Below are positions 27,168-45,089 of a DNA stretch of 64,000 nucleotides, piece after piece. How positions within the stretch are numbered: the first letter of the stretch is position 1; the number at the start of each line of letters is the position of its first letter. Under the pieces are notes generated by a model that saw nothing but the letters and a program-made list of their open reading frames with translations, was not told the DNA's origin and made no database searches. This DNA is from Streptomyces roseoverticillatus (lineage in GTDB: Bacteria > Actinomycetota > Actinomycetes > Streptomycetales > Streptomycetaceae), in NCBI RefSeq assembly GCF_000719265.1, contig NZ_JOFL01000016.1:248001-312000 (forward strand). Direction: 5' to 3'. The position numbers and the translations under genes were made by a program.

Positions 27168-28271
27168 TCAGGAGCAGTCGGCGACCGCGTTGTCGTGGGT
27201 GAGAGCGCACACGATCCGGTTGCCCTCCTTTACGCCGTAGGCGCCCTTCAGCTGCTGCTGGAAGTCGTGCCACTGCCGCCGGGTCTCCGTGATGGCGCCG
27301 TGGACCGCGCGGTCGAAGTTGCCGGCGGCCTTGCCGCGCGGGGTCGTGGGGTCGGAGGCCGCCCCGGTCCGCTGGTCGATGAGGCCGTTGTCCTTGTTCA
27401 TGTCGTCGCTGTGAGCGATGCGGCCTGTGCAGCTGCCGCTGCCGGGCAGGTAGAAGCAGCCGGTCGACAGGTCCACGGGGATGTCCGCCGGCGGCCTGGA
27501 CGCCGTCAGGTCGAGCAGCGGGGACGGCGCCGGGCGGTTCAGGCCCGGAGGGTTGTGGATGCCCGGCGGCTTGCCGGTGCCGGCCTTGTCGGTCCAGTTG
27601 CTGTGCGCGTAGAAGTCCTGGATGCCGTGCAGGGACTCGCCGAAGGCCTTGAACGCCTTACACTTGGCGCGCCGCTCGTCGGCGCTCTGGATGACGTTGC
27701 AGTCGTCGGCGAGACCGACCTGGTCCGGGGCGACCGCACCAGAGCCGTTGAGTATGCGACCGGCAGCGCCGGCGCCGTCCTTGAAGCGCATCTGCAGGTT
27801 CGCGATGCAGCTCTGAAGCGCCTTGGTGGCGGCGGCACGGCTGACGGGGTACGACGGGGCGTCGAAGTAGTCCGCGTTGTCGCAGTGCGCGTTGGCCTGA
27901 GCGAGCTGGGTGCGGTCCGGGGCGCCGACGGCACCGAGGCCCTTGCCGGAGAGGAGCTGGGCGTCGTGCCCCGAGACCTGGTCCATCGACCGGGGCTGGA
28001 AACAGCTGCCCTTGTCCGCGAGGTCCGAGTCGCAGGACAGCGCTGCGCGGGTGATCCGCTCGTGTTCGTGGTTCTGGCCCAGGGAGCCGTAGGTGCCGAA
28101 GGCGTGGGCGGACGTGGCCGGGACGGCCAGCAGCGCGGAGGCCGTGATGCCCAGCGCCGCGACCAGCCGGCCCGGCCGCCGGGCCCCGCGCGAAGCGCTC
28201 CCGCGGAGTTTCCGCGTGTGCAAGGTGCCCGGCGTGGTGCGTGAGGTGCCTGAGGTGAAGGTGCCTGGCAT
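27168..28271 (-). CDS. cinY: CinY-like secreted protein of the lanthipeptide cluster
   Basis: A 367-residue exported protein. The N-terminus has a long basic region and a hydrophobic stretch (LVAALGITASALLAV) ending in a type I cleavage site AHA around residue 57. The mature part starts FGTYGSLGQNHEHERITRAA and contains GIQDFYAHSNW, a pair of His/Glu-rich motifs like those in Het-C/zinc-dependent phospholipase-C-fold proteins; this resemblance is by eye. CinY in the cinnamycin cluster has no assigned function as far as I know. It is the last gene of the minus-strand operon. Confidence 0.8.
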   Translation of the reverse strand: MPGTFTSGTSRTTPGTLHTRKLRGSASRGARRPGRLVAALGITASALLAVPATSAHAFGTYGSLGQNHEHERITRAALSCDSDLADKGSCFQPRSMDQVSGHDAQLLSGKGLGAVGAPDRTQLAQANAHCDNADYFDAPSYPVSRAAATKALQSCIANLQMRFKDGAGAAGRILNGSGAVAPDQVGLADDCNVIQSADERRAKCKAFKAFGESLHGIQDFYAHSNWTDKAGTGKPPGIHNPPGLNRPAPSPLLDLTASRPPADIPVDLSTGCFYLPGSGSCTGRIAHSDDMNKDNGLIDQRTGAASDPTTPRGKAAGNFDRAVHGAITETRRQWHDFQQQLKGAYGVKEGNRIVCALTHDNAVADCS

Positions 28272-28318
28272 AGGTGAACTCCCGGATGAGGGAAGAGAAT
28301 GGCGGCGGAGCACTGCGG

Positions 28319-29209
28319 TCACTCCGCCCTGGAGAAGCGGCGGCCTGCCACGACCACTCCCACCAGCGTGGCGACGGCCACGAGGGTGAACTCGGCTGCT
28401 GCCGTCACCTGCCATCCGCCCCATGTGACGCGGTCGAAGTAGTCGGAGAGGGGCCCGTGGTGGAAGGTCATGACCGTCTGCCGCATGCCGTCGACCGCGT
28501 ACGTCAGCGGGTCGATCAGGGAGAGCGCCGCCATCCAGTCCGGCATGGCGCTCACGGGGAACATCATCCCGGACAGGAAGGTCAGGGGGAGAAGCAGGAC
28601 GCTCAGCGCCACGTTGAAGGTCTGCACCCGCCTGACGCTGACCGCGAGCGCGGCGGCCAGGACCGTCAGGGACAGAGAGACCAGCAGCAGCTCGGCCAGC
28701 AGGGCCGCGAACAGATCGACGCGGTAGGGCACTCCGGCGAGCCCGGCACTGGCCAGGACCACGAGGGCCTGGCAGGTGGCGACGGTGGCGCCGCCGAGGC
28801 ACTTGCCGAGCAGCAGCGTGATCCGCCCGACCGGGGCCACGAGCATCTCCCGCAGGAAGCCGCTCTCCCGGTCCCAGACGATCGAGGCGCCGACCGCGAT
28901 CGCGGGCTGCTGCACGGTCATCACCAGGACGCCGGGGAAGAGGAACAGCAGGTAATCGTCCGAGGTGTGGGAGCCGGCGACGAGCCGGCCCAGGCCGATG
29001 CCCAGGATGTAGAGGAACAGCAGCGGCTGGGCCAGGGCGGACGCCACCCTCGGCAGATCCCGCCAGAAGTGCATCATCTCCCGGCGCCAGACCATGCGGC
29101 CCGCGCGCAGTTCGGCGGTGAGACGGCGGGAGCGCCGACCCGGACCCGCCGGGCCGGCGGGCACCGACGGGCTCCGGTCCGTGCCGCGGCCGGTGGTGGC
29201 ATGGCTCAT
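28319..29209 (-). CDS. cinH: ABC-2 type permease, CinH-like
   Basis: A 296-residue membrane protein with six hydrophobic segments and the ABC-2 signature region (ASIVWDRESGFLREMLVAPV; FLSGMMFPVSAMPDWMAAL). It is the membrane half of the DrrAB-like exporter with the ATPase just upstream; the two share ATGA. The substrate is expected to be the lanthipeptide. A 50-base gap separates it from the CinY-like gene. Confidence 0.88.
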   Translation of the reverse strand: MSHATTGRGTDRSPSVPAGPAGPGRRSRRLTAELRAGRMVWRREMMHFWRDLPRVASALAQPLLFLYILGIGLGRLVAGSHTSDDYLLFLFPGVLVMTVQQPAIAVGASIVWDRESGFLREMLVAPVGRITLLLGKCLGGATVATCQALVVLASAGLAGVPYRVDLFAALLAELLLVSLSLTVLAAALAVSVRRVQTFNVALSVLLLPLTFLSGMMFPVSAMPDWMAALSLIDPLTYAVDGMRQTVMTFHHGPLSDYFDRVTWGGWQVTAAAEFTLVAVATLVGVVVAGRRFSRAE

Positions 29210-30183
29210 CGGGGATCTCCCGCTCCGTCGCCGCCCCGGGGCGGCGCGTCGTCGCGGAGGCCGCGACCGGTGTGGTGGAGGAACACATCGTCCAGGGTGG
29301 GCCGGATGACGGTGACCTCCTGGACGAGGACGCCGAGCCCTGCGCACAGGGCCGGCACGGCCCGCGCCCCGTCCTCGGCCCGGACCCGCAGACCGCCCGG
29401 GAACGCCGTCGCCTCCAGACCGAAGCGGGTCCGCAGCGCCTGCGCCGCCGCGGTGTCGTCCTCGGTGCGCAGCTCGATGCGGTCCGCGCCGACCACGGAC
29501 TTCAGCTCGGCAGGGGTCCCCTGGGCCACGATCCGCCCGCCGTCGATGATGGCGATCCGGTCACACGTCTCGGCCTCTTCGAGATAGTGGGTGGTGAGGA
29601 AGATCGTGGTGTCCTCGCGCGCCCGGATCTCCGAGAGATACGTCCACAGGTGCGCCCGGGTCTGCGGATCGAGCCCGATGGTCGGTTCGTCCAGGAACAG
29701 CAGCCGGGGACGGTGCAGCAGCCCCCGGGCGATCTCCAGCCTGCGCCGCATCCCGCCCGAGAACGTCCGCACCAGGCTGCCGCGCCGCTCGGTCAGTCCG
29801 ACCAGGCCGAGCATGGCGTCGACGCGGGCCGGGAGCGAGGCCGTGGGCATGTCGTAGAGGTCGGCGTGGAACCGCAGGTTCTCGGCCGCGGTCAGATCGC
29901 CGTCGAGCGTGGTCTCCTGGAAGACCAGGCCGATGGCGCGGCGCACCTCGTGCGGTTCCCTGCGGGTGTCGTGACCGGCGATCTCGATGTGCCCGGCGGT
30001 GGGCGTGGCCAGGGTGCACAGCATGGCGATCGTGGTGGACTTGCCCGCGCCGTTCGGGCCGAGGAAGCCGAAGGTCTCGCCCTGGGCCACGGTCAGGTCG
30101 ATACCGCGTACGGCCCGTACGTGTCCGTAGGTCTTGGTCACCCCGCGCGCGTGGATGGCGGTCGGTCCGGATCCTGCCGGCAC
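29206..30183 (-). CDS. cinT: ABC transporter ATP-binding protein, CinT-like
   Basis: A 325-residue DrrA-type ATPase: Walker A GPNGAGKST, Q-loop VFQETTLD, signature FSGGMRRRLE, Walker B LLFLDEPTIGLD and H-loop TTHYLEEAE. The C-terminal 100 residues are the DrrA-family extension. The GTG start follows GAGGAG. It forms an exporter with the permease at 28319, probably for the cinnamycin-like peptide. Confidence 0.9.
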   Translation of the reverse strand: MPAGSGPTAIHARGVTKTYGHVRAVRGIDLTVAQGETFGFLGPNGAGKSTTIAMLCTLATPTAGHIEIAGHDTRREPHEVRRAIGLVFQETTLDGDLTAAENLRFHADLYDMPTASLPARVDAMLGLVGLTERRGSLVRTFSGGMRRRLEIARGLLHRPRLLFLDEPTIGLDPQTRAHLWTYLSEIRAREDTTIFLTTHYLEEAETCDRIAIIDGGRIVAQGTPAELKSVVGADRIELRTEDDTAAAQALRTRFGLEATAFPGGLRVRAEDGARAVPALCAGLGVLVQEVTVIRPTLDDVFLHHTGRGLRDDAPPRGGDGAGDPR

Positions 30184-30234
30184 CTGTTCTCCTCGTCTCG
30201 TTCGCGGACAGGTCTCTCTGGTCGGCAGGTCGCA

Positions 30235-31140
30235 TCAGGCGGCCGGTCGCAGGCGGTCCATCCAGCCTTCGGGGACGGCGAAGCCGAAGCTCCAGCGGTG
30301 GCGGTCCGTGGGGTTGACGATGCAGTGCCAGAAGAGCTTCTCCGGATCCTGCTCGATCTTGAAGAAGCGGACGGTGCGGGGGCTTTCGGGGAGCGTGACG
30401 ATTTCCTGCGTCCGTGGGTTCATGTAGCGGAAGAACGAGGACTTCTCCGGGGTCTCGAACGGCCGGTCCGTGTCGATGACGTACATCCGCCAGCCGGGCT
30501 GGTCCTCGTTGGTGTGCCACAGCCGGTAGCCGGCCGGCGGGTACCACAACGCCCCGGAGAAGCGCACCTCGCCGCCGAAGAGGCCTTCCAGGGCGGTGAC
30601 GACCCGGCTCTTGGCGGCGAGGTAGTCCCCGTAACCCGGGTGTGTCACGTGCTCGTCCAGGTTGATGAGGTGGAAGCCATGGGTCGCGGGCAGGCCGGCG
30701 GCGCCCCGCCGGAGCGGCTCCGCCGCGGCCTTGCGGTACCAGGCGCGGAAGCGGGGATCGGCGGGGGAGAGCGAGGTGGACCGCATGTCCTCCTCCCGGA
30801 AGCCCGCGGCGAGCTCCGCGAGGTCCGCCGAGGGCGGCCGGATCTTCAGGCGGGGCAGCTCCGCGGCGACCGGCTCGAACCCCGGCAGGTCGTCGATCGC
30901 GTACTCGTAGTGGTAGAAGGCGGTGTCCGCCGGAGGCGGGCTCGCGCGCCGCGCGGCGTCGGGGGAGCCGCCGGGCAGCGATGCCGATGCCGCCACCAGC
31001 TCCTCGGCGCTGAAGGAGTATCCGCTGCGCCGGCCGAGCAGGACGATCTCCTCCAGCCCGGTCATCGCCTTCATCTGCTGCGCCAGGTCCCCCGGGTCCC
31101 GGGCCGAGAGGAGGAATTCCGTACAGGATTCGACGGACAT
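30235..31140 (-). CDS. cinX: CinX-like peptidyl-aspartate hydroxylase
   Basis: A 301-residue protein in the position of CinX, the iron/2-oxoglutarate-dependent enzyme that hydroxylates Asp15 of cinnamycin. Residues 1-50 (CTEFLLSARDPGDLAQQMKA; SGYSFSAEELV) resemble a Nif11-type leader-like domain. The catalytic part contains LWHTNEDQPGW (His209 and nearby acids), FWHCIVNP (His272) and RHRWSFGF (Arg282) as candidate iron and 2-oxoglutarate ligands. Asp15 is retained in the precursor core, so the enzyme has its expected substrate. 52 bases separate it from cinM. Confidence 0.82.
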   Translation of the reverse strand: MSVESCTEFLLSARDPGDLAQQMKAMTGLEEIVLLGRRSGYSFSAEELVAASASLPGGSPDAARRASPPPADTAFYHYEYAIDDLPGFEPVAAELPRLKIRPPSADLAELAAGFREEDMRSTSLSPADPRFRAWYRKAAAEPLRRGAAGLPATHGFHLINLDEHVTHPGYGDYLAAKSRVVTALEGLFGGEVRFSGALWYPPAGYRLWHTNEDQPGWRMYVIDTDRPFETPEKSSFFRYMNPRTQEIVTLPESPRTVRFFKIEQDPEKLFWHCIVNPTDRHRWSFGFAVPEGWMDRLRPAA

Positions 31141-31192
31141 GCGGTCTCTCTCTTTCTGTCTGCCCCGGTGGTGAAAGGGGGCGGGGGAGGAA

Positions 31193-34100
31193 TCAGGGCG
31201 CGGCCGGGGGATCGAGGAGCAGGACGGAGGGGACCCGCTGCGGTGCGGCGAGGCGCAGGCAGTGCATGCCGAACCCGGAGATCCCCAGCATCAGTCCGGG
31301 GAAGAAGTTGGCGCTGCCCTCCGCCGCGCCGTCCCGCGGGTCGTCGAAGTCGCGCCAGAGAGCCTGCGCCTGGATGTTGGCCTCCATCCGGAAGGTCGGG
31401 TCGCCGCAGAGGGCGGCCACTCGCAGGAGCAGTTCGGCGTTGCCCGACCTGCCGTGGCACAAGGTGTGGTTCCGCAGCCGGGGAAAGTTGCGGACCGTGG
31501 TTCTGAGCGCCGCGTAGGCGTCCCGCAGCATGGTGTCGTCGGCGGAGCCGAGCGCCGCCCAGCTCGCGATCCGGCTCAGCCCGATGCCCGCCGCTCCGTT
31601 GCACCAGGCGTTGGCGTAGTGGCGGCCGTTCTTGGCCACCCCTCCGGCGCTGGTCCGCAGGTCGTACCAGTCCTGTTCGACGCCGTCGAAGTGCCGGGAC
31701 TCGTACGCGAACGCCTTGAGCCCGGCCGTGACGCAGTCCTCGCGGCCGGTGCGCCGCCCCAGGGCGATCAGTGCCCAGCCGATGCCGCCCGCGCCGTGGG
31801 CGAACCCGGTGAGGTTGGCGTGCGCGACCCCGGCGGGGAAGGGCGGCCAGCTCAGGCCGGCACCGTCGGCCTCGGCGTGCCGCAGCACATGGTCGGCACA
31901 GCGGTGCGCCAGCTCGATGCCGTGTCCGCCGGTCGCGTCCGCGAGGCCGAGCAGTACGGGGATGAGCCCGGCCGCGCCCTGGAAGACGTCCAGGTGGCGG
32001 TCCGCCTCGATCAGCGCGGGCAGTTCGCCGGTCAGCCGCACGGCCTGGTCGAGCAGCCGCTCGTCCTTCCACAGGTGGTGCAGGTGGGTCAGGAGGTAGA
32101 TGGTGCCGCCGATGCCGCCGAACGCCCCCGGACGCTTGCGGTCGCAGTGGACGACCGCGTGCTCGGCTGCCCGTTCGGCGGCCGCCCGGAACTCCTCGCG
32201 GGGCACCGCGTCGTCGAGGTAGGCCAGGAACAGGGCGATGCCCGCGGTGCCGAGGTAGAGGTCGGCCTCGATGTCGACCACGGTCACGGACCCGTCCGCG
32301 AGTTCGTAGGAGGTCCACGGCGAGGCGGCGCCGGGCGGGCGCAGCTCCCCGAGGAGCCGGTCGCCGGTCCTGGCCGCGTAGTCCGTGGCCGCGCGGACGA
32401 ACGACTCGTCGGCCACCCCGTCGGCGACCAGGCTTGCGGTGATGTAGTGCGTCTGCTGCACACGGTTGTGGTCGGTGAGCCGGCCGATGCGCCCGATCGC
32501 CTCGTCGAGCGGGGAGAGTTCGAGGGGGGAGGTCAGCTCGTCGGTGTGGTCGTGCACGAGGCGCGTGCCCCGGGCCCGCGCGGAGAACAGGGGGATGTCC
32601 AGCTGCCACAGGGACCGGCTCTCCCGCTCCGCCAGGACGTTGGTGTGGTCCCATGTGCGGGGGAAGGTCCGGACGGTGTTGGCCAGCAGGTCGACCTCCA
32701 GCGGCTCGGCCAGGCACTTCGGATGCCGGGCGGCCACCAGCAGCTGCTGGTAGATCTGGGTGCTCCAGTTCACGAAACGCACCGGAATATCCCCAAGGGC
32801 CTCCGCCACCCGCCGGGCCGCCTCCTCGGGGCTCCGCTGGAACCAGGCGTAGACGCGCTCGAAGCCTTCGGTGACGGCGTCGGCGTGGTCCTCGGGCCGC
32901 ACCAGCTCCCCGCCCAGGACGACCCGGTTGGCCGGGTCGACCGGGACCCGGGCGCCGGTGACATGGGCCACGGACGCCTGGAAGCTGAGCCGGTCCCCGC
33001 CGATCCGGGGCACCGGCATCGGCACTTCGTAGTCCTCACCGCCCGCGTAGCCGCTGATCCTCATGGTGTCCGGGCCCGCGGGCAGGACGGCGTCGCGGGG
33101 GCGTTCGAGCAGCCCGGTCTTGAACACCGAGTCGATCAGCGTGCCGTCGGGCTGCCCCTGCCCCCGCGGGGTGATCCCGAGGACGGTCTCGGCGTCGCAG
33201 ACGAAGGCGTGCCCGTCGGCGACCATGATGTTCTCGTGGTGGAGGTCGCTGCCGCCCAGCACGTAGAAGACGCCGAGGTATCCGCCCAGTTCGCGGTAGA
33301 CGGCGGCCGCCTGCTCCACCGTCGCCACCTCATTGCGTCCCGAGGGGATCAGCGCCTCGTAGCCGTATCCGCCCATCGGGAGCACGGCGCGGGGAGCGAA
33401 ACCGAGCACCCCGTCGTCCGCCAGGGCGCGCAGCAGTTCCTGCAGGCCGGCCTCGGCCCGGACGCTGCGCGGCTTGTAGCAGAACGTCTCCGTGGAGCCG
33501 TCGCCGAGTTCGGCCCGCACGCGCGCGACGCTGCGGGCGCCCGCATGGTAGTCGCCGCCGCCCGGCTCGAAGGAGGTGAAGGCACTGATCGTCCGCCGCC
33601 CGAAGAAGGCCTCGCCGATCCGGCCGGCATCCGTGGCGAGGTGGTGGAAGACCTCCTCGCCGTACGCTCCCAGCAGGGCCGTCACATGGGCCAGCCAGCG
33701 TCCCAGTACCGGGTACTTGAGATAGAACGCGTGGTACGAGGCGGGATCGGCGAACGTCAGGTCCAGATAGCCGATGTACTCCTCGCGCGTGGCGCCGGCG
33801 GCGTCGATGCCCTGCAGTTCGCAGTGGACCTTGGCGTCGGCTTCCACGGCCCACGCCAGCGCCATCTCGAAGCGCTGCAGCAGGTGCCGCTGGAAGTCCT
33901 CGACCAGCCGCTCGCTCAGCAGGGCGCGCCGCCGCCCCGGCAGGTTCGCGCGCGTCCTGCGCAGCCTGCGGCCGAGCTCCGCCAGGAACGGTGCACAGGC
34001 TATGGCCAGCTTGCCGTAGTACACCCCGGGGTCGCGCCGGAACGCCTCGGCCTCGCCGTCCGGCCTGCCGCCGGCGGCGTCGAGCGCCGCCCGGTAGGTG

Positions 34101-34429
34101 GGCAGCCAGGAAGCGTGGACCTCCGCGAGCGTGTCGCGCACGCTGCCCGGGGCGTCCCCGAGGCCGAGTTCGATGCGCCGGTAGGCGGACAGCACCACGA
34201 CGAGTTCGTCCTTGGAGTACTGCGGCGGCACCGACCGGTGCGCCGCCTCCTGCGCGAACTTGTCCGCCAGCTTTGCCGCGAGCCGCCCGGTCCGCCAGGT
34301 GTCGAAGGCGTCCGGGCCGCCCGGCGGCAAGGGGCCGGGCGGCGGGTCGCAGGCGTTCACGACCCGTATGCGCTCGGCGAGGTTGCTCGCCCTCGCGGCG
34401 AGGTCCATGGGATAGGCGGCAGTGGCCAT
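31193..34429 (-). CDS. cinM: class II lanthionine synthetase LanM (CinM-like)
   Basis: A 1078-residue bifunctional LanM. The N-terminal two thirds are the dehydratase, which phosphorylates and eliminates Ser/Thr of the precursor (GGSDLHHENIMVADGHAFVCDAE and KPRSVRAEAGLQELL are recognisable). The C-terminal third is a LanC-like cyclase with zinc ligands Cys943 (WCNGAAG), Cys991 and His992 (LCHGRSGN). ATG 34429 (MATAAYPMDLAAR) has AGGAG about ten bases upstream. It is predicted to make the three (methyl)lanthionine rings 1-18, 4-14 and 5-11. Confidence 0.95.
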   Translation of the reverse strand: MATAAYPMDLAARASNLAERIRVVNACDPPPGPLPPGGPDAFDTWRTGRLAAKLADKFAQEAAHRSVPPQYSKDELVVVLSAYRRIELGLGDAPGSVRDTLAEVHASWLPTYRAALDAAGGRPDGEAEAFRRDPGVYYGKLAIACAPFLAELGRRLRRTRANLPGRRRALLSERLVEDFQRHLLQRFEMALAWAVEADAKVHCELQGIDAAGATREEYIGYLDLTFADPASYHAFYLKYPVLGRWLAHVTALLGAYGEEVFHHLATDAGRIGEAFFGRRTISAFTSFEPGGGDYHAGARSVARVRAELGDGSTETFCYKPRSVRAEAGLQELLRALADDGVLGFAPRAVLPMGGYGYEALIPSGRNEVATVEQAAAVYRELGGYLGVFYVLGGSDLHHENIMVADGHAFVCDAETVLGITPRGQGQPDGTLIDSVFKTGLLERPRDAVLPAGPDTMRISGYAGGEDYEVPMPVPRIGGDRLSFQASVAHVTGARVPVDPANRVVLGGELVRPEDHADAVTEGFERVYAWFQRSPEEAARRVAEALGDIPVRFVNWSTQIYQQLLVAARHPKCLAEPLEVDLLANTVRTFPRTWDHTNVLAERESRSLWQLDIPLFSARARGTRLVHDHTDELTSPLELSPLDEAIGRIGRLTDHNRVQQTHYITASLVADGVADESFVRAATDYAARTGDRLLGELRPPGAASPWTSYELADGSVTVVDIEADLYLGTAGIALFLAYLDDAVPREEFRAAAERAAEHAVVHCDRKRPGAFGGIGGTIYLLTHLHHLWKDERLLDQAVRLTGELPALIEADRHLDVFQGAAGLIPVLLGLADATGGHGIELAHRCADHVLRHAEADGAGLSWPPFPAGVAHANLTGFAHGAGGIGWALIALGRRTGREDCVTAGLKAFAYESRHFDGVEQDWYDLRTSAGGVAKNGRHYANAWCNGAAGIGLSRIASWAALGSADDTMLRDAYAALRTTVRNFPRLRNHTLCHGRSGNAELLLRVAALCGDPTFRMEANIQAQALWRDFDDPRDGAAEGSANFFPGLMLGISGFGMHCLRLAAPQRVPSVLLLDPPAAP

Positions 34430-34480
34430 GCGGCACGTACTCCTGGAGTCGGCGGGTCGGTCGGATGCACGCAGGATGCG

Positions 34481-34517
34481 CGGTGCGGTGGGGCGGACGG
34501 ACCGCCCCACCGCACCG
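34481..34517 (-). terminator. stem-loop between precursor and LanM genes (attenuator-like)
   Basis: Sixteen perfectly paired bases (CGGTGCGGTGGGGCGG with CCGCCCCACCGCACCG) around a 5-base loop, 56 bases beyond the cinA stop and 51 before the cinM start. A partial terminator here would give more precursor message than enzyme message, as in other lantibiotic operons. Confidence 0.75.
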
Positions 34518-34573
34518 CCGGGACCCCGGAAGGTCAGGGCCCCGGTTCATTCACCGGAGCGACGTACGGGTCA

Positions 34574-34810
34574 CTACTTGGTGCCGCCGTCGCAGATGAT
34601 GGTGAAGCGGCCGGAGCTGCAGGAGCTGGTGCACTCGACGGCGTTCATGGCCACGGCGCCCTCGGTCCAGAAGTCCAGCGACTCCTGGTCGAAGTCCTCG
34701 ACCGCGGCCGGCAGGGACGTGGCCGACAGGCCGAACGCGGCCGGGTCGGCGAGCACGGCGGCGCGGAACTCCGCGTCCACTACGGTCTGGCGGAGCATGG
34801 TTGCAGTCAT
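34574..34810 (-). CDS. cinA: cinnamycin-like lanthipeptide precursor
   Basis: A 78-residue precursor: 59-residue leader and 19-residue core, the same lengths as CinA. The leader shows the family pattern (MTATMLRQTVVDAEFRAAVL, AAFGLSA, SLDFWT). The core, coded by 34577-34633, is CTSSCSSGRFTIICDGGTK. Compared with cinnamycin (CRQSCSFGPFTFVCDGNTK) it keeps Cys1, Ser4, Cys5, Ser6, Gly8, Phe10, Thr11, Cys14, Asp15, Gly16, Thr18 and Lys19, so rings 1-18, 4-14, 5-11, the 6-19 lysinoalanine and Asp15 hydroxylation are all possible. Positions 7, 9, 12 and 13 differ. The last three leader residues are AVE instead of AFA. AAGGAG precedes the ATG. Confidence 0.95.
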   Translation of the reverse strand: MTATMLRQTVVDAEFRAAVLADPAAFGLSATSLPAAVEDFDQESLDFWTEGAVAMNAVECTSSCSSGRFTIICDGGTK

Positions 34811-34853
34811 GCTGTTCTCCTTGGTGTGTGAGTGATCGGTGTGCGAGTGGAGA

Positions 34854-35267
34854 TCACTCGGACGGCTGGACCACCCGGCCCTGCCCGGCGTTCAAGTGGT
34901 GCAGGTCCTTCTGCAGCTCCTGGGCGATCAGCACGAGGCCGGTCCGCTCCTCGGCATCCTGGAGCTCGTGCAGGGCCGCATTCATGTTGTCGCCGACGTT
35001 CTGCCAGGCGACCAGTTCCCTCCCCTCGGGGGAGAGGTCACCGTGGATCCACAGGGATTCGAGCCAGGCCTTGACCTCGAACGGATGCAGCCCGGCCGGC
35101 CGGGCGGTCCGCGCGAGCAAGGGCTCCTCGTGCAGGGCGAGCGCCTTCTCCAGGACCTCCCGCAGTTTCCCGTCGGGCGGCAGCAGCATGCACAGGACCA
35201 TGAGCTCCTGCACACGCCGGATGGTGTCGACTCCCGGGTAGATCGTGTCTTCCTTCGCGCTTTTCAT
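34854..35267 (-). CDS. cinorf7: Cinorf7/DurN-like lysinoalanine-forming protein
   Basis: A 137-residue protein (MKSAKEDTIYPGVDTIRRVQ; ELMVLCMLLPPDGKLREVLE; then DLHHLNAGQGRVVQ). It holds the place of cinorf7/durN directly upstream of the precursor gene. DurN catalyses the Lys19-to-dehydroalanine6 crosslink of duramycin. Both residues are present in the core here. ATG 35267 has GGGGTGG before it. The identification rests on position and general resemblance. It is first in the minus-strand operon, behind the 11-bp repeat array. Confidence 0.8.
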   Translation of the reverse strand: MKSAKEDTIYPGVDTIRRVQELMVLCMLLPPDGKLREVLEKALALHEEPLLARTARPAGLHPFEVKAWLESLWIHGDLSPEGRELVAWQNVGDNMNAALHELQDAEERTGLVLIAQELQKDLHHLNAGQGRVVQPSE

Positions 35268-35348
35268 GGACCACCCCAATTCCGTTCGACGTCCCGGCAG
35301 AACGACGTTAGACGGGGGGACTTGCCGATCGGTCACACCGGGGATTCA

Positions 35349-35469
35349 CGGTGCCTTCGCATTGCTCTCCACACACTTTTAGTACGCATTCAGCGCACTT
35401 TCATTGCGCTTTCGTCACGCTTTCAGCGCGCTCTCCATGCGCTTTCACGGTGCTTTCGCGGCGCCTTCA
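35349..35469 (-). repeat. eleven 11-bp direct repeats, putative SARP-binding array
   Basis: Read on the minus strand the 121 bases divide without remainder into 11 units of form TGAAAGC-GNNN (for example TGAAGGCGCCG, CGAAAGCACCG, TGAAAGCGCAT, GGAGAGCGCGC, TGAAAGCGTGA). A twelfth partial unit, TGAATCC, follows downstream. A heptamer plus four bases, one helical turn, is the spacing SARP regulators recognise. The array ends about 80 bases before the cinorf7 start; its first unit covers the stop codon of cinR. A possible promoter (TGACCG, 18 bases, TAACGT) lies at 35305-35334. Confidence 0.8.
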
Positions 35470-36117
35470 GCCGGTGAGCCCGGCGTCGCGTGCGTAGAGG
35501 GCGGCCTGGACCCGGTTGCCGACTTCCAAGGCGGCCAGGATGCGGCTGACATGGGCTTTCACCGTACTTTCCCGCATACCGAGCCCCGCGGCGATTTCGG
35601 CGTTGGAGGCGCCTTCGGCGAGGAGCCTCAGCACGTCGGCCTCCCGTGGTGTCAGCCGGTCCAGGCGTGAGCGGGCTGCGGAGGTCCGGGCGCGGGTGGT
35701 GCGGTGGCAGTGTTCGATGAGGCGCCGCGCGGCGGAGGGGTGGAGCATGGCCTGGCCGTCCGCGACGACTTCCACGGCCCGGATGATCTCTGCGGGGTCG
35801 CTGTCCTTGAGCAGGAAGCCGACCGCCCCGGCGGCGAGGGCGTCGTACACGTACTGGTCGAGGTCGAAGGTCGTCAGCATCACGACCTTGGGCGGATCGG
35901 GCAGGGCGAGCAGCCGCGCGGTGGCCTCGATCCCGTCCATGCGGGGCATGCGGACGTCCATCAGGACGACGTCCACGTGCTGCGTACCGGCCCGTGCCAC
36001 GGCCTCGGCGCCGTCGGGCGCTTGCGCCGCGACGGTGATGCCGGGTGCGTCGCTGAGGATGTCCACGAGCGCCAGGCGCACCAGGCTGTCATCGTCAACG
36101 ATCATCGTGCGGATCAC
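35467..36117 (-). CDS. cinR: NarL/LuxR-type response regulator, CinR-like
   Basis: A 216-residue two-component regulator. The receiver domain shows VDDDSLVRLALVDIL, phosphorylation Asp in VVLMDVRMPRMDG and the conserved Lys in FLLKDSDP. The C-terminal LuxR HTH reads LTPREADVLRLLAEGASNAE and STVKAHVSRIL. It overlaps the stop of the kinase gene by GTGA, so kinase and regulator are coupled. In the cinnamycin cluster CinRK responds to the peptide at the cell surface and turns on immunity, which may apply here. Confidence 0.9.
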   Translation of the reverse strand: MIRTMIVDDDSLVRLALVDILSDAPGITVAAQAPDGAEAVARAGTQHVDVVLMDVRMPRMDGIEATARLLALPDPPKVVMLTTFDLDQYVYDALAAGAVGFLLKDSDPAEIIRAVEVVADGQAMLHPSAARRLIEHCHRTTRARTSAARSRLDRLTPREADVLRLLAEGASNAEIAAGLGMRESTVKAHVSRILAALEVGNRVQAALYARDAGLTG

Positions 36118-37274
36118 GCCGCTCCCTCGCTTCGCCGGCTGTCCTGCGGGATGCCGGCGGTGACTTCCCAGCCACCCGCTCCCGTGGGTCCGTATGCCAG
36201 GCGGCCACCGAGCGCGTCCACCCGCTCGGCCAGCCCCACCAGGCCGTAGCCGGATCCCGCTGCCGCGACCTCGGACCGCTCGCCGTCCGGGTTACGGACC
36301 ACCACGGTGGACTCCGGCGGTCCGTAGTGCACCTCTACCCGGACCCGCGCTCCTGCGGCATGTTTACGGGCGTTGGTCAGGGCCTCCTGAACCAGGCGGT
36401 GCACGGCGAGGCGGTGGCTGGCCGGCACGGCCTCGGCGTCGCCCTCGACGAGCGTGTCGACTTCCTGACCGGCTGCCCGCGCCTCGTCCAGCAGCGTCGA
36501 CAGCGCCCGCAGGCCCGGCTCCCGCGCGTCCGTGGCCTCGGCGGGGCCGTGGCGGCGCAGTGCCCCGAGGACGTCCCGCAGGTCGTCCAAGGCTTCCGTC
36601 GAGGCGGTGCGCAGCAGGCTTATGCGGTCGGCCACCGGGCCGGGCAGGGCGGCGCCGCGCCGCTGGAGGGCGCCGGTGTGCAGGGCAATGACTGTCAGGC
36701 GGTGTGCGAGGACGTCGTGCATCTCGGCGGCTATCCGGGTGCGCTCTTCCAGCCGGGCTCCCTCCGCGCGCAGTTCGCGCTCCACGCGCAGGTGGTCCAC
36801 CTGGCCGGCGAGCGAGGAGACCAGTCTGCGGCGGCTGTCGGCCCACAGTCCGAAGGCGAGGGCGACCAGCAGCACTGCCAGGGGCCCGTAGGAGCGGGTC
36901 GCCCACAGGCTCTGCTGCGGGTGGGTGAACGCGCCGGCCGCCATCGCGGCGGCCGCGCTCGCCGCCCCGAGAACGAGCCGGCCACGGGAGGCGAGGTGGA
37001 AGACCACGATCAGCAAGGGGAACAGCGACCCGAGCCCTGCCGCTCCGGCCGTCGCGCAGACGGCGGCCGGCACGGGCCACCGGTAGCGCAGCGCGACCGA
37101 CAGGCCCAGCACCGCCGCCGGCACCACGCGCGGGCTGGCCAGCGTGCCGCCGGCCGCCACGTAGGCCTCCTGCACGGCGCTCCAGGTGACCATGCCGACC
37201 AGCAGCGCCTCCGCCCACCACGGCCACGCACGGCCCGCCGCCTTGCCCGACACCCGGCCCGCTGACTTGTTCAC
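36114..37274 (-). CDS. cinK: sensor histidine kinase, CinK-like
   Basis: A 386-residue membrane kinase of the HisKA_3 (NarX/DesK-like) group. About five membrane segments fill the first 140 residues. The dimerisation helix has RTRIAAEMHDVLAHRLTVIA with the phospho-acceptor His. The ATPase domain has ALTNARKHA (N box) and GSGYGLVGLAERV (G box). The GTG start is accepted because it begins just before the first basic/hydrophobic segment. It is divergent from the methyltransferase gene with a palindrome between them. Confidence 0.9.
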   Translation of the reverse strand: MNKSAGRVSGKAAGRAWPWWAEALLVGMVTWSAVQEAYVAAGGTLASPRVVPAAVLGLSVALRYRWPVPAAVCATAGAAGLGSLFPLLIVVFHLASRGRLVLGAASAAAAMAAGAFTHPQQSLWATRSYGPLAVLLVALAFGLWADSRRRLVSSLAGQVDHLRVERELRAEGARLEERTRIAAEMHDVLAHRLTVIALHTGALQRRGAALPGPVADRISLLRTASTEALDDLRDVLGALRRHGPAEATDAREPGLRALSTLLDEARAAGQEVDTLVEGDAEAVPASHRLAVHRLVQEALTNARKHAAGARVRVEVHYGPPESTVVVRNPDGERSEVAAAGSGYGLVGLAERVDALGGRLAYGPTGAGGWEVTAGIPQDSRRSEGAA

Positions 37275-37330
37275 CCGATCATCCTAGGCAGGCAATCGCC
37301 CTGCCATCCACGACAGTTGTCGGCCACCGA

Positions 37331-37348
37331 CCCCTACTTTCGTAGGGG
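37331..37348. promoter_or_regulatory. palindrome between cinK and methyltransferase genes
   Basis: CCCCTAC-TTTC-GTAGGGG, a perfect 7-base inverted repeat 57 bases from the cinK start and 58 from the methyltransferase start. Central placement between divergent genes suggests the binding site of the CinR-like regulator. Confidence 0.65.
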
Positions 37349-37405
37349 TACACCGTCGCAGGAAGGCCGAGGGCGGCCGGTCGCCGGCTTCCTAGCGTTG
37401 CCGCC

Positions 37406-38218
37406 ATGACGAGCAATCAGGCCAAGTCTTCCGCTGCCTTCTCCGCTTCTTCTCAGGCCTCTCTTCCGGATTCCCTCGAACCATCCGGCGCCGGCGGCCG
37501 GGAGCCGGGCATGATGGCGTTCCTGCGCGAGGCCTGGCGCAGCATGCGTACGACCGGCGCGATCGCGCCCAGCAGCATCCACCTCGGCAACGGACTGGCC
37601 GCGCCGCTGCTCGCCCCCGGGAGCCGCGGACCCGTCCGGGTCCTGGAAGTGGGCGCCGGCACCGGCACCGTCACCCGTGCGATCGCCTCCCGGCTCGGGC
37701 CGGGCGACCGGCTGGAGGCCGTCGAGTTCAACCCCGCCTTCGTCCGGCTGCTCACCCGCGCGCTGCGCCGGGACGCGGTGCTGTCCGCCGTCTCCGGACA
37801 GATCCGCATCATCCCGGAGTCGATCACTGAGCTGCCACTGGCCGAGCGCGCCTACGACGTCATCGTCTCCTGCCTGCCGTTCACCAACTTCACACCGGAA
37901 ACCGTCCGTTCTCTCCTGGAGCGCTTTCTGACCGCGCTCGTGCCCGGCGGCCACCTCACCTACTTCGGCTACCTCGGCACTCAACCGGCCCGCAACCTGA
38001 TCAGCAGCCGGGCCGAGGCCGCCCGGCACCGCTCGGTCGGCGCCGTGCTCACCGAGTTCTCCGCCCACTACGGCAGCGGCGGCAGCGGCGGCATCGTCTG
38101 GCGCAACCTCCCGCCCGCCCGCGTCATCCACCTGCGCGCGCCCGAGCGGTGCGCTGTCCCGGCCGGCACCGCGGCCGCGCTCGCGGCCGCCCCGGACCGC
38201 CCCTGGCTGCGCCGGTGA
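37406..38218 (+). CDS. cinorf10: phospholipid (PE) N-methyltransferase-like, Cinorf10-like immunity protein
   Basis: A 270-residue SAM-dependent methyltransferase of the PmtA type: FLREAWRSMRTTGAIAPSS, motif I VLEVGAGTGTVTRAIA, EFNPAFVRLL, and SCLPFTNFTPETV. PmtA-like enzymes methylate phosphatidylethanolamine. In the cinnamycin producer a cluster-encoded PE methyltransferase gives immunity by making monomethyl-PE, which cinnamycin cannot bind. The Ser-rich first 35 residues are unusual and a later ATG at about 37510 is possible. It overlaps the DedA-like gene by GTGA. Confidence 0.82.
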   Translation: MTSNQAKSSAAFSASSQASLPDSLEPSGAGGREPGMMAFLREAWRSMRTTGAIAPSSIHLGNGLAAPLLAPGSRGPVRVLEVGAGTGTVTRAIASRLGPGDRLEAVEFNPAFVRLLTRALRRDAVLSAVSGQIRIIPESITELPLAERAYDVIVSCLPFTNFTPETVRSLLERFLTALVPGGHLTYFGYLGTQPARNLISSRAEAARHRSVGAVLTEFSAHYGSGGSGGIVWRNLPPARVIHLRAPERCAVPAGTAAALAAAPDRPWLRR

Positions 38219-38901
38219 TCCTGCCCGCCGGACTACTGGCGGACATACCGCCCGCCGCCGCCTATCCAGTGATCACCGGTGTCGTGGCCCTGGAATCAGT
38301 GCTGCTGCTCGGCCCCTTCGTTCCCACGCTCACCCTGCTGCTGGTCGCGGGCGGCCTCGCGCACGCCGGCACACTGGCCCTGCCCGCCGTGATCGTCTGC
38401 GCGGCGGCCGGCGCCGTCGCGGGGGACCTGCAGGCCCACCGGATGGGAAGCAGGCTCGGCGGAGGGCTGCGCACCGGACGCCTGGGGCACAGGGTCCCGG
38501 CCCCGGCGTGGGACCGTGCCTGCGCGGTGGTGCGCCGGAGAGGCCGGGCGGCTGTCCTGATCTGCCGCTTCTTGCCGCTGGCCCGCACACTCGCCCCGCA
38601 CGCGGCGGGGGCGGCCGGGCTGCCCTACCGCAGTCTGGCCCCGTACAGCGCTGCGGCGGGCACGGCGTGGGCGGGCGCGGAGGCCGGGGCCGGCTACGCG
38701 GGCGCGGCCTCCCTGCGCCGGCTGATCCCGGCGCACCTGCACGGGGGAGCGGGCGTGCTGCTGGTGGTGGCGGTCGTCGCGGGTGCGGTGCTGGTCGTCC
38801 TGACCGTACGGGTGGTACGGGTCGTACGGACGAGGCGGCGGCGGAACCGGCGCCTGCGTGTGCGAGCCGGCCGCCCGGGCGGCTATGAGGCGCGTTGCTG
38901 A
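38215..38901 (+). CDS. DedA/VTT-family membrane protein
   Basis: A 228-residue protein with about five hydrophobic segments and DedA features: VVALESVLLLGPFVPTLTLL near the N-terminus and FLPLARTLAPHAAGAAGLPY (the F-x-P-x-x-R motif of the family). DedA proteins act as lipid flippases/scramblases, some for PE. It is translationally coupled to the PE methyltransferase-like gene, so it may move methylated or unmethylated PE across the membrane as part of immunity. The end is very Arg-rich. Its last 19 bases overlap the convergent SARP gene. Confidence 0.82.
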   Translation: MILPAGLLADIPPAAAYPVITGVVALESVLLLGPFVPTLTLLLVAGGLAHAGTLALPAVIVCAAAGAVAGDLQAHRMGSRLGGGLRTGRLGHRVPAPAWDRACAVVRRRGRAAVLICRFLPLARTLAPHAAGAAGLPYRSLAPYSAAAGTAWAGAEAGAGYAGAASLRRLIPAHLHGGAGVLLVVAVVAGAVLVVLTVRVVRVVRTRRRRNRRLRVRAGRPGGYEARC

Positions 38902-39701
38902 TACTGCTCCCGCGGGAGCGGCCCCCGCACCGGCAGGAGTTCCTCGTCCGCGTGCAGCATCGCCAGGTGCAGTCGCCGCGCTTCCTCCCCCGGCTCCACA
39001 CCCAGCTCGTCACGGAAGGACGTGCGCATCGCCGCGTAGGCCTCCAGGGCCTCACCGCGGCGGCCGCAGCGGTACAGCGCGGTCATCAGCTGGGTCCAGC
39101 GGCGCTCGTGAAAGGGGTACTTGAACGTGAGCGCGCGCAGCTCTCCCACGATCTGGTCGTGTCGGCCCAGGGCCAGGCACACGTCGTGGTAGCGCTCGCT
39201 CGTGGTGAGCCAGCCCTCCCGGAGCCTGGGCGCAACTTCGCGGTGCAGCGATTCGGATTCGATGTCCGCGAGCGGCTGACCACGCCACAGCGCCAGCGCC
39301 TCGGTCAGCAGATCGGCCTCCCCGGCCAGGTCGCCGCGGTCCCCGGCGGCGCGGGCGAGTCGGGTGAGCCAGTCGAAGCGCCTGAGGTCGAGGCAGCATG
39401 GAGCGACCTCGATGGTGTAGCCGCCCGGGGCGGTGCGGATGCGCCGGCCCAGCCCGGCGCCGTCCGCCTCCAGGCTCTGGCGCAGCCGGGTCAGCATGGT
39501 GTGCAGGGCACGGCGGGGCCGGGACGGCAGCCCGTCGCCCCACAGCCGGTCGACCAGCTCACTGACCGGGACCACCTCATTCGCGTTCACCAGCAGCGCG
39601 GCGAGCAACGCTCGCTGCTTGCCCGCGGGAATGAAAATCGCCCGGCCTCCAGCCGACACTTGCAATGGGCCCAGCACACAGAAGCATTCGCTGTCGTCCA
39701 C
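38883..39701 (-). CDS. cinR1: SARP-family transcriptional activator, CinR1-like
   Basis: A 272-residue Streptomyces antibiotic regulatory protein. It has an OmpR-like winged helix at the N-terminus (FCVLGPLQVSAGGRAIFIPA; KQRALLAALLVNANEVVPV; then RTAPGGYTIEV) and a BTAD domain (ALALWRGQPLADIESES; ALYRCGRRGEALEAYAAMR; DELGVEPGEEARRL). GTG follows AAAGGAG. SARPs bind direct heptamer repeats with 11-bp spacing, and such an array lies at 35349-35469, ahead of the biosynthetic operon. It is the most likely pathway-specific activator. Confidence 0.93.
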   Translation of the reverse strand: MDDSECFCVLGPLQVSAGGRAIFIPAGKQRALLAALLVNANEVVPVSELVDRLWGDGLPSRPRRALHTMLTRLRQSLEADGAGLGRRIRTAPGGYTIEVAPCCLDLRRFDWLTRLARAAGDRGDLAGEADLLTEALALWRGQPLADIESESLHREVAPRLREGWLTTSERYHDVCLALGRHDQIVGELRALTFKYPFHERRWTQLMTALYRCGRRGEALEAYAAMRTSFRDELGVEPGEEARRLHLAMLHADEELLPVRGPLPREQYQQRAS

Positions 39702-40053: not shown

Positions 40054-40626
40054 TCAGGGCGTGGTCGTGGACACCATAAAGACCCGGGGGTACTTCGGGT
40101 CGTCGAGGTTGGCGGTGATCTCCAGGGAGGGCTTGGGCTTGTCCTGCTCGACGGTGGTGCCCGCCCAGTGGTGGCCCTCGCCCAGGTCCCAGCCGACCTC
40201 GGCGGCCTCGTCCTCGTCGATGGTGACCTCGCCGGCCTCCAGTTCGGCGGGGCTGGAGCCGACGTCGGAGAGCCACTTGTCGAACTTCTCGCGCGTGGTG
40301 GTGAACTGCAGGAAGAGCGAGCTCGCCTTCCACGCGTTGGTCTCGTAGGAGGCGACGTCCTCCGCGTAGGGCGGGACGGTCACCTCGTAGAGGCGGCGCT
40401 GGAGCCGGGTCGGCCAGCCCTCCTCCAGGCCGGAGGCGGCGGCCTGCTCCTTCTTGGACTCGCTGCCGCCGCGGCTCTGCATCGCGGAGATGTAGAGGTA
40501 GCCGGCGGGGATGGCGATGAGCAGGAAGATGATGACGGTCTTCAGGCAGCGGCGGCTGAAGCCGCCGCCGGGCGGGGGGCCGGGCGGCAGCGCCGTGCGC
40601 TCTGCGGGGTGCTCCGTGGTGGTCAT
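40054..40626 (-). CDS. single-pass membrane protein of unknown function
   Basis: A 190-residue protein: Pro-rich cytoplasmic start (ALPPGPPPGGGFSRRCLK), one transmembrane helix (TVIIFLLIAIPAGYLYISAM), then an extracytoplasmic region ending DDPKYPRVFMVSTTTP. No family is recognised. Its ATG overlaps the ROK gene's stop by one base (TGATG), so it is probably translated with the kinase. Its link to sugar metabolism is not evident. Confidence 0.8.
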   Translation of the reverse strand: MTTTEHPAERTALPPGPPPGGGFSRRCLKTVIIFLLIAIPAGYLYISAMQSRGGSESKKEQAAASGLEEGWPTRLQRRLYEVTVPPYAEDVASYETNAWKASSLFLQFTTTREKFDKWLSDVGSSPAELEAGEVTIDEDEAAEVGWDLGEGHHWAGTTVEQDKPKPSLEITANLDDPKYPRVFMVSTTTP

Positions 40627-41744
40627 CAAGCGCGGCCCGCCCTCGCGTAGCGCTCGTAGCGCTCGACGCGGCGCCGGTTGGCGCGGCGGAAGCGGCGGGC
40701 GACGAGCCGGGCCAGGTCCGCGGCGCCGACCATGCCGGCCTCGGGGCCGAGCTGGGCCTTGACGATGCGGGCCTCGGGGCGGTAGCCGCGGCCGGTGAGG
40801 TGGCGGCGGAAGGCGTCCCGGGCGGGGGCGATCAGCAGGTCGTCGGCGGCGCTGACGCCGCCGCCGATGACGAAGCAGGAGGGGTCGAGGGCGGCCGCGA
40901 GGTTGGCGATGCCGACGCCGAGCCACTGGCCGATGTCCTGCAACAGCTCGACGCACATGGCGTCGCCGGAGCGGGCCAGCTCGGTGATGAGGGGGCCGGT
41001 GATCTCGTGGATGTTGCCACCGACGCGGTCGATGATCCCGTACGCGACGGGGGACTCGGCGGCGGCCAGCTCGCGGGCCTCGCGCACGAGGGCGTTGCCG
41101 GAGCTGTACTGCTCCCAGCAGCCGCGGTTGCCGCAGGGGCAGCGGTGGCCGCCGGGCACGACCTGCATGTGGCCGAACTCGCCGGCGACGCCGAACTTGC
41201 CGCGCTTGACCTGGCCGTCCTCCAGGATCGCGCCGCCGATGCCCGTACCGAGGGTGATCATCACGAGGTGGTCCTCGCCGCGGCCGGCGCCGAAGCGCCA
41301 CTCCGCCCAGGCGGCGGTGTTGGCGTCGTTGTCGACCATGACGGGGACGGCGAGGCGGCCGGCGAGGCGGTCGCGCAGCGGCTCGTTGCGCCAGGACAGG
41401 TGCGGGGCGAACAGGACGCGGTTGCGGTCGGCGTCGACCCAGCCGGCCGCGCCGATGCCCACGGCGTGCACGTCGTGCCGGTCGGAGAGGTCGAGAACCA
41501 GCTCGACGATGGTGTCCTCGACGACCTTGGGGCTCTTGGACTTGTCCGGAGTCTCCGTGCGGAGCTTCTCCAGGATGTTGCCGTCGGCGTCCACGACGCC
41601 CGCCATCACCTTGGTGCCGCCGATGTCGATGCCGACGGTGGGGACGCGCGGGGCGGTCAGGTGCGAGCGGCGCTCGCGCGTGCCGACGGTGCGCAGCACA
41701 GTGGCTCTCGCGGCGCCCCGGTGGAGCTCGCGGTACATGCTCAT
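40626..41744 (-). CDS. ROK-family sugar kinase (glucokinase type)
   Basis: A 372-residue ROK kinase. The ATP motif is VGIDIGGTKVMAGVVD, the catalytic Asp lies in VMVDNDANTAAWAEW, the phosphate region is LGTGIGGAI, and the zinc motif is GHRCPCGNRGCWEQY. There is no N-terminal HTH, so it is an enzyme and not a NagC/XylR-type regulator. The first 35 residues and an Arg-rich tail extend it beyond the usual 315-residue glucokinase. It lies 200 bases from the sugar transporter ATPase and probably phosphorylates the imported sugar or glucose. Confidence 0.92.
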   Translation of the reverse strand: MSMYRELHRGAARATVLRTVGTRERRSHLTAPRVPTVGIDIGGTKVMAGVVDADGNILEKLRTETPDKSKSPKVVEDTIVELVLDLSDRHDVHAVGIGAAGWVDADRNRVLFAPHLSWRNEPLRDRLAGRLAVPVMVDNDANTAAWAEWRFGAGRGEDHLVMITLGTGIGGAILEDGQVKRGKFGVAGEFGHMQVVPGGHRCPCGNRGCWEQYSSGNALVREARELAAAESPVAYGIIDRVGGNIHEITGPLITELARSGDAMCVELLQDIGQWLGVGIANLAAALDPSCFVIGGGVSAADDLLIAPARDAFRRHLTGRGYRPEARIVKAQLGPEAGMVGAADLARLVARRFRRANRRRVERYERYARAGRA

Positions 41745-41946
41745 GACGCCACCGCCACGGCGTGGAGCTGGGCGGATGTACGGTCGCTCCGGCTGCGTGC
41801 TCGCAAGAGTCGTCGTCCCTGCGGTGGTCTCGGGAGGCGGCTGCCTCGTGGATACGGTCGTGGCCGATTGTGCCTCAAGGAAGCGTTCCGTACCGCATCG
41901 CCGGGGGCGGGCCCGCCCCCGGCGGGCCCGCCTGTTGAGAGCTCCG

Positions 41947-44866: not shown

Positions 44867-45042
44867 GAGGAGTTGCCCTTCTCACTGTCTGTCACGGTGC
44901 GGCCGGACCCGTCCCACGGGCCCAGCCGCCCAAGTATCCGTCACCATCCGTCACCGCCGACCGCGGGGGCTTCAGGGGTCCTGCCGAGGGCTGCTGCATG
45001 TGGGTGGAGTTCTAATGGCGGGCGCCCCACCCCGTCAAGACT

Positions 45043-45054
45043 TTGTCCGAACAT
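45043..45054. promoter_or_regulatory. candidate GntR operator at the transporter operon
   Basis: TTGTCCGAACAT. Apart from one base, it repeats TTGTCCGGACAT at 45906-45917 on the other side of the GntR gene. The core TGTCCGAACA is a near-palindrome. Confidence 0.6.
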
Positions 45055-45065
45055 TCTGACGGCCT

Positions 45066-45089
45066 GGCGTACGGGCTCGCCCGTACGCC
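45066..45089. terminator. hairpin terminator downstream of GntR gene
   Basis: GGCGTACGGG and CCCGTACGCC form a perfect 10-base stem with loop CTCG, 17 bases past the GntR stop. Confidence 0.75.

What the first reader, a model, noticed from the sequence alone, without database searches (positions are those of the whole stretch)
27168..39701. A cinnamycin-type lanthipeptide cluster with an undescribed-looking core peptide
Seen: precursor of 59 + 19 residues with core CTSSCSSGRFTIICDGGTK, followed by LanM, CinX-like hydroxylase, ABC exporter and CinY-like protein, and preceded by a Cinorf7/DurN-like protein, CinRK-like genes, a PE methyltransferase-like gene and a SARP. Known: cinnamycin has rings 1-18, 4-14, 5-11, a lysinoalanine 6-19 and 3-hydroxy-Asp15; all these residues are conserved here. 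The core differs at 2, 3, 7, 9, 12, 13 and 17 from cinnamycin, and I do not recall it in duramycin, kyamicin, mathermycin or divamide. Inference: a new member with full ring topology but changed surface.
Basis: partly seen in the sequence, partly recalled or inferred. Interest (0 to 1): 0.95.

Follow-up and report, generated by a model that had tools for sequence, protein, structure and literature searches.

The report
Cinnamycin-type lantibiotic with arginine-9 pocket
This bacterial genome carries a complete gene cluster for a cinnamycin-like peptide that has an arginine where its relatives nearly always have the proline thought to line the lipid-binding pocket, so the peptide is predicted to recognise its membrane lipid, likely phosphatidylethanolamine, in an altered way and would test what sets target choice in this antibiotic family.

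Summary
Confirmed: window 27168-39701 holds a complete cinnamycin-type class II lanthipeptide cluster with core CTSSCSSGRFTIICDGGTK (34577-34633, minus). All ring, lysinoalanine and hydroxylation residues are kept. No identical core occurs among 142 listed relatives or in the paper library. "Changed surface" misses the main point: position 9, Pro in 134 of 142 relatives and Ile, Val or Tyr in eight, is Arg here. Engineered P9Q cinnamycin is inactive and thought not to bind phosphatidylethanolamine (PE), yet still induces the immunity genes (PMC5408092). The last leader residue, Ala in 127 of 142, is Glu here and in none of the 142. The PE methyltransferase and CinKR-type genes are intact, so I favour a PE-directed lantibiotic with altered headgroup recognition; retargeting or a pure inducer is not excluded. 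Side finding: the gene at the cinorf11 position, of unknown purpose in print, encodes a DedA/VTT-type membrane protein, which here overlaps the methyltransferase gene by GTGA. Product, target and activity are untested.

The parts
34574..34810 (-). cinA-like precursor, 59-residue leader and 19-residue core
   Evidence: NF033431 104.2 bits, PF19398 91.2 bits
34577..34633 (-). core CTSSCSSGRFTIICDGGTK, Arg at position 9, Glu at leader position -1
34480..34518 (-). 17-bp perfect hairpin between cinA and cinM, likely attenuator as known in cin
   Evidence: RNA fold z -5.55 for 34470-34573; attenuator in cin from PMC5408092
31193..34510 (-). LanM lanthionine synthetase; ORF opens at 34510, likely start Met at 34429
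   Evidence: TIGR03897 479.6 bits; CNG and CHG motifs conserved in 5 of 5 aligned proteins
30235..31140 (-). CinX-like hydroxylase with N-terminal Nif11 domain
   Evidence: 58% to the cinnamycin-cluster protein; Nif11
29206..30183 (-). CinT-like ABC ATPase
   Evidence: TIGR01188 321.1 bits; 74% to cin
28319..29212 (-). CinH-like ABC permease
   Evidence: PF01061 106.6 bits; 64% to cin
27168..28241 (-). CinY-like protein, not essential in cin
   Evidence: 52% to cin; not essential per PMC6974636
34854..35336 (-). DurN lysinoalanine maturase; likely start Met at 35267
   Evidence: PF19375 117 bits; PDB 6c0g E 3.1e-44
35339..35470 (-). about 12 tandem 11-bp units like TGAAAGCG upstream of durN, likely SARP operator
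35467..36117 (-). CinR-like response regulator
   Evidence: PF00072, PF00196; 80% to cin
36114..37274 (-). CinK-like histidine kinase
   Evidence: PF07730; 62% to cin
37406..38218 (+). CinL/Cinorf10-like methyltransferase, predicted PE methyltransferase for immunity; likely start Met at 37511
   Evidence: 62% to cin; alignment
38215..38901 (+). DedA/VTT membrane protein at the cinorf11 position; start GTG overlaps the methyltransferase stop
   Evidence: PF09335 42.2 bits; GTGA overlap; 63% to cin
38883..39701 (-). CinR1-like SARP activator
   Evidence: PF03704 127.1 bits; 60% to cin

Best explanation
A complete cinnamycin-type lanthipeptide gene cluster, with arginine at core position 9, encodes a 19-residue peptide that is predicted to be cross-linked, hydroxylated and exported like cinnamycin and likely still acts on phosphatidylethanolamine (PE) membranes, but with altered headgroup recognition. 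Predicted steps: the SARP switches on durN-cinA-cinM-cinX; CinM dehydrates Ser4, Ser6, Thr11 and Thr18 and closes rings 1-18, 4-14 and 5-11; CinX hydroxylates Asp15; DurN joins residue 6 to Lys19; CinTH exports; the leader is cut at a site that lacks the usual Ala; CinKR senses the peptide and turns on the PE methyltransferase, perhaps helped by the DedA protein, for self-protection. HyAsp15 would still hold the PE ammonium while the Arg9 side chain contacts the lipid phosphate or a neighbouring anionic lipid. Shown by sequence: gene content, core letters, conservation pattern. Inferred: every chemical and biological step.
For: Full gene set and family scores. All bridged and hydroxylated positions kept. 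LanM zinc-site motifs kept. CinK, CinR and methyltransferase retained at 62-80% identity to the cinnamycin cluster, which makes sense if PE in the producer is still at risk. Cinnamycin contacts the phosphate, glycerol and tail start as well as the headgroup (PMC10092488 passages), leaving room for an Arg-phosphate contact.
Against: P9Q cinnamycin lacks activity and is thought not to bind PE, so a bulky Arg9 may abolish binding. Arg9 is in none of 142 listed relatives. Glu at -1 may block normal leader removal. Immunity genes could outlive a change of target. The window branch is the longest for the methyltransferase, DedA, DurN, CinM, CinX and CinH trees. No product has been seen.
Confidence: 0.5

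Rival explanations
1. Retargeted lantibiotic: Arg9 replaces PE recognition by recognition of another lipid, most plausibly an anionic one such as phosphatidylglycerol or cardiolipin.
For: Unique charged residue at a pocket position (1 of 143 with the window's own); net charge of the core +1, against 0 in 116 of 142 (16 of 142 are also +1); P9Q loses activity; Arg9 is derived, its nearest relatives in the leader tree keep Pro.
Against: PE methyltransferase and its sensor genes are kept; HyAsp15 position, which would bind an ammonium, is kept.
Confidence: 0.25
2. Signal peptide: the product no longer binds PE or kills, but still triggers CinKR, as P9Q cinnamycin does, and so primes immunity against cinnamycin-like competitors.
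For: P9Q is inactive but induces PE methylation; CinK and CinR are well kept.
Against: The full modification and export machinery is retained, which is costly for a signal; no case of this in nature is known to me.
Confidence: 0.12
3. Cluster in decline: Arg9 and Glu(-1) are mutations in a silent pathway that no longer makes a mature lantibiotic.
For: Two conserved positions changed in one precursor; long window branches for DurN, CinM, CinX and CinH.
Against: The genes are open and full length with family scores and conserved motifs; the bridged residues are kept; the protein is on two contigs in the database, the longer of 645,491 bases, while the window's contig has 384,990, though both may be one strain.
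Confidence: 0.1

Closest known systems
Cinnamycin and its cluster (cin; read here from genome G018, L007 and L008)
   Same: Gene for gene: DurN/CinN, CinA, CinM, CinX, CinT, CinH, CinY, CinR, CinK, methyltransferase, DedA/orf11, SARP; ring, lysinoalanine and hydroxylation residues
   Different: Core differs at 7 of 19 positions including Pro9 to Arg; leader ends in Glu instead of Ala; CinRK lie upstream of durN instead of downstream of CinY; about 12 operator repeats instead of three
Precursors P0002 (Streptomyces olivoreticuli) and P0003 (Streptomyces gamaensis)
   Same: Closest leaders (79% and 71% identity; same clade); Ser7
   Different: Pro9 kept; one extra residue after Lys19
Kyamicin cluster
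   Same: Same compact set with KyaL and Kyaorf11 (PMC6974636)
   Different: Kyamicin sequence not compared here; no CinY in kya
Cinnamycin P9Q (engineered)
   Same: Proline 9 replaced by a bulky polar side chain
   Different: Laboratory variant and uncharged; inactive but still an inducer. Here the change is natural and charged

Membership tests
Cinnamycin-family class II lanthipeptides | Precursor matches the family model with Cys1, Cys5, Cys14, Ser/Thr4, 6, 11, 18, Asp15, Lys19 | tested here: met
   NF033431 104.2 bits over cut-off 35; core letters
Cinnamycin-family class II lanthipeptides | LanM, CinX and DurN genes beside the precursor | tested here: met
Cinnamycin-family class II lanthipeptides | Published common motif CxxxCSxGPFTxxCDGxTK | tested here: not met
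   Broken at Pro9 only (motif from PMC12837462). The motif is descriptive: 8 of 142 relatives also lack Pro9 and 65 of 142 lack Phe10, so it does not exclude membership
Cinnamycin-family class II lanthipeptides | Mature peptide with three (methyl)lanthionines, lysinoalanine and hydroxy-Asp15 | not testable with these tools
   Needs mass spectrometry
Cinnamycin-family class II lanthipeptides | Binds phosphatidylethanolamine | not testable with these tools
   Needs binding assays; Arg9 puts it in doubt
PE methyltransferase immunity (CinL/Cinorf10) | Homologous methyltransferase beside cinK with conserved SAM motif | tested here: met
   62% to cin; VLEVGAGTG kept, one residue after it changed
PE methyltransferase immunity (CinL/Cinorf10) | Methylates PE | not testable with these tools
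   Needs lipid analysis
DedA / VTT membrane proteins | VTT domain over curated cut-off | tested here: met
   PF09335 42.2 bits over 33.9 in the window; 50.0-55.2 bits in L003, L005, L008
DedA / VTT membrane proteins | Moves PE or methyl-PE between leaflets | not testable with these tools
   Analogy only to Bacillus subtilis PetA, cited in PMC12561984

The most novel reading that the evidence does not exclude
A natural cinnamycin whose pocket proline has become arginine has switched its membrane target away from plain PE, towards an anionic lipid or a PE-anionic lipid pair: a natural retargeting in a family known as PE binders.
Probability: 0.25. Interest if true: 0.75.

Novelty: new variant of a known kind. 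Interest (0 to 1): 0.5.

Why it matters
Cinnamycin and duramycin are used as PE probes and studied as drug leads. A natural Arg9 peptide with its whole pathway beside it gives a direct test of whether position 9 sets lipid choice. Reading cinorf11 as a DedA-type gene turns an unexplained gene into a testable partner of PE methylation: a methyltransferase working from the cytoplasm would need lipid exchange between leaflets to convert all PE (inference).

Tried and rejected
Phe7 to Ser as the key change: rejected, Ser or Ala at 7 in 38 of 142 relatives. Thr2, also unseen in the 142, was set aside because position 2 takes 13 other residues.

Nif11 on CinX as new: rejected, present over cut-off in 4 of 4 other CinX-like proteins scanned (the cinnamycin one barely, 24.0 against 23.8 bits), and RumX is already called a Nif11 family protein in print.

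Methyltransferase loss as a sign of retargeting: rejected, the gene is intact.

The 11-bp repeat array as unique: rejected, Streptomyces africanus L003 has one as strong.

Association of non-Pro9 with non-Ala at -1 (6 of 8 against 9 of 134, Fisher p 1.2e-5): not used as evidence, since five of the six fall in one clade.

PDB sequence search with the DedA protein gave nothing useful (best E 0.034, an acetyltransferase); with the methyltransferase, 57 distinct sequences up to E 1, best 7.2e-7, one a PE N-methyltransferase (8ys9, E 0.011). Paper search for Pro9 with duramycin and cinnamycin found none. The sigma-70 scan of 34400-35500 found none and the terminator scan one plus-strand match against 0.6 expected. 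Passages of PMC6509333 and PMC5817074 did not help. Structure prediction was not used.
Full report
What is there. Window 27168-39701 holds a complete cinnamycin-type cluster. On the minus strand: SARP, sensor kinase, response regulator, DurN-type maturase, precursor, LanM, CinX-type hydroxylase, ABC ATPase and permease, CinY-like protein. On the plus strand: a methyltransferase followed by a DedA/VTT protein. The core pattern occurs once and in none of 100 shuffles.

A direct yardstick. Whole-genome search for the precursor family found 2 of 392 same-genus genomes: this one and G018. The G018 precursor ends in the exact cinnamycin core (CRQSCSFGPFTFVCDGNTK; that this is cinnamycin is recalled and agrees with the R2K relation to duramycin in PMC5408092), so I take loci L007 and L008 as the cinnamycin cluster. 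Other, overlapping samples gave 2 of 61, 6 of 394 (class, 5 over cut-off), 3 of 395 (relatives) and 1 of 391 (order). The family is rare.

The core. Three protein searches listed 18 of 18, 120 of 213 and 120 of 188 hits, 144 distinct proteins. Leaving out the window's own protein and P0111, whose core end is lost, 142 relatives remain; hits below the listing caps were not seen. None has this core; the nearest differs at 3 positions (P0083). Cys1, Cys5, Thr11 and Lys19 are in all 142 (columns 14-16 were the anchor used to find the cores, so their constancy is by construction). Position 7 is Phe 63, Trp 33, Ser 20, Ala 18, other 8; position 17 is Gly in 14. Position 9 is Pro 134, Ile 6, Tyr 1, Val 1; Arg and any other charged residue are absent. 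Thr2 is also unseen, at a position with 13 residue types. A published comparison gives CxxxCSxGPFTxxCDGxTK as the common motif (PMC12837462: abstract, one section and passages seen); this core breaks it at Pro9 only. A leader-only tree groups the window with P0002 (support 0.94) and then P0003 (0.82), both Pro9, so Arg9 looks derived. The protein lies on two contigs in the protein database, the longer of 645,491 bases, not the window's contig of 384,990, which argues against a one-off assembly error.

Why position 9 matters. In the cinnamycin immunity paper, read whole (PMC5408092), P9 is said to contribute to the PE pocket and perhaps touch the ethanolamine; P9Q lacks antimicrobial activity and is thought not to bind PE, yet still induces PE methylation through CinKR. 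Passages of a solid-state NMR paper (PMC10092488) describe a shared hydrophobic stretch from residue 7 to 14 and contacts with headgroup, phosphate, glycerol and the start of the tails. An arginine at 9 could plug the pocket against HyAsp15, reach the phosphate, or bind a neighbouring anionic lipid. This is inference.

The leader end. The residue before Cys1 is Ala in 127 of 142 relatives (Asp in 3, Glu in none), and -2 is Tyr in 119; here they are Val-Glu. For cinnamycin the AFA sequence is predicted to be cut by type I signal peptidases (PMC2843593 passages; the same is said of AYA in RumA, PMC6165096 passages). With Glu at -1 the cut may shift or need another protease, so the mature N-terminus and mass are uncertain.

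Immunity is kept. The methyltransferase is 62% identical to its cin counterpart; VLEVGAGTG and SCLPFTNF are kept. Against a simple reading, trees of four or five loci give the window the longest branch for the methyltransferase (0.39 against 0.22-0.34), DedA (0.48 against 0.32-0.38), DurN, CinM, CinX and CinH; for CinK, CinR, SARP and CinT it is not the longest. The samples are small and the DurN values change with the taxa used. I read retention of the methyltransferase and sensor as a sign that PE in the producer is still at risk, which is why the PE-directed reading comes first.

DedA. The methyltransferase stop (38216-38218) overlaps a GTG (38215-38217) in the DedA frame. In the cinnamycin genome a 63% identical VTT gene sits at the same place and its open frame runs on into the SARP gene, which fits the printed description of cinorf11 (frame extends 570 bp into cinR1; PMC6974636; introduction and part of the results read). 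In ten cinnamycin-type loci with flanks (window, G018, L003-L006, L014-L017) tblastn finds DedA in 6 of 10 and the methyltransferase in 4 of 10; each of the four has both side by side, while L014 and L015 have DedA without the methyltransferase in the fetched flank. L018 was dropped because it shows neither precursor nor LanM. Flanks may be too short in L004, L006, L016, L017, and L005 is a contig end. The two papers with the word cinorf11 in the search listing (15 of 334 shown) do not contain DedA or flippase in the main text. A search for DedA with PE and duramycin gave two papers; one says in passing that Bacillus subtilis PetA transports PE and that dedA-family mutation there alters duramycin susceptibility (PMC12561984 passages). 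I propose that cinorf11-type proteins exchange PE and methyl-PE between leaflets so that methylation reaches all PE. Against: deleting the non-overlapping part of cinorf11 had no effect on production.

Regulation. Upstream of durN lie about 12 tandem 11-bp units like TGAAAGCG (35470-35339, minus). Lag-11 identity is 0.60, reached by 0 of 300 shuffles; L003 0.61 (0 of 300), L005 0.45 (2 of 300), L004 0.39 (14 of 300), and L006, L007 and L016 show none; the start of durN was not located in L014, L015 and L017. The cinnamycin promoter has three hexamer repeats in print. A 17-bp hairpin between cinA and cinM (34480-34518; z -5.55 for the stretch) fits the attenuator known in cin.

Verdict. A real new member with an otherwise unseen residue at a functional position: a new variant of a known kind at sequence level. 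Activity, target and mature form are untested.

Noticed in passing
window 38215-38901 (+); L003 6041-6541; L005 6350-6850; L008 4381-4875; L014 12019-12423; L015 7730-8209: The gene at the cinorf11 position is a DedA/VTT membrane protein, beside the methyltransferase in 4 of 10 loci and without it in 2 more.
   Followed up: partly
window 35339-35470 (-); L003 upstream of durN: Long arrays of 11-bp repeats, likely SARP operators, in place of the three repeats described for cinnamycin.
   Followed up: partly
P0093, P0094, P0100, P0104, P0133: A clade of relatives with Ile or Val at core position 9 and Arg or Pro at leader position -1: another natural departure from Pro9.
   Followed up: no
P0053, P0054, P0067, P0071, P0077, P0096, P0105, P0122, P0124: Nine of 142 relatives carry a charged residue between positions 7 and 13 (Glu7, Arg10 or Lys12), none at 9.
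   Followed up: no
27 of 142 listed relatives, for example P0002 and P0003: One or two extra residues follow Lys19, the lysinoalanine residue.
   Followed up: no
L007 6873-7340: A second, weakly similar DedA-type frame (31%) about 4 kb upstream of durN in the cinnamycin genome.
   Followed up: no
window 40626-45856 (-): Beyond the SARP, a likely sugar-uptake operon: ROK-type kinase and ABC ATPase (named by eye), periplasmic binding protein and GntR/UTRA regulator.
   Followed up: no
window 2311-4857 (-), 4973-5812 (-), 15489-16880 (-): A fused alpha/beta hydrolase and carboxymuconolactone decarboxylase, a radical SAM protein and a cytochrome P450 upstream of the cluster.
   Followed up: no
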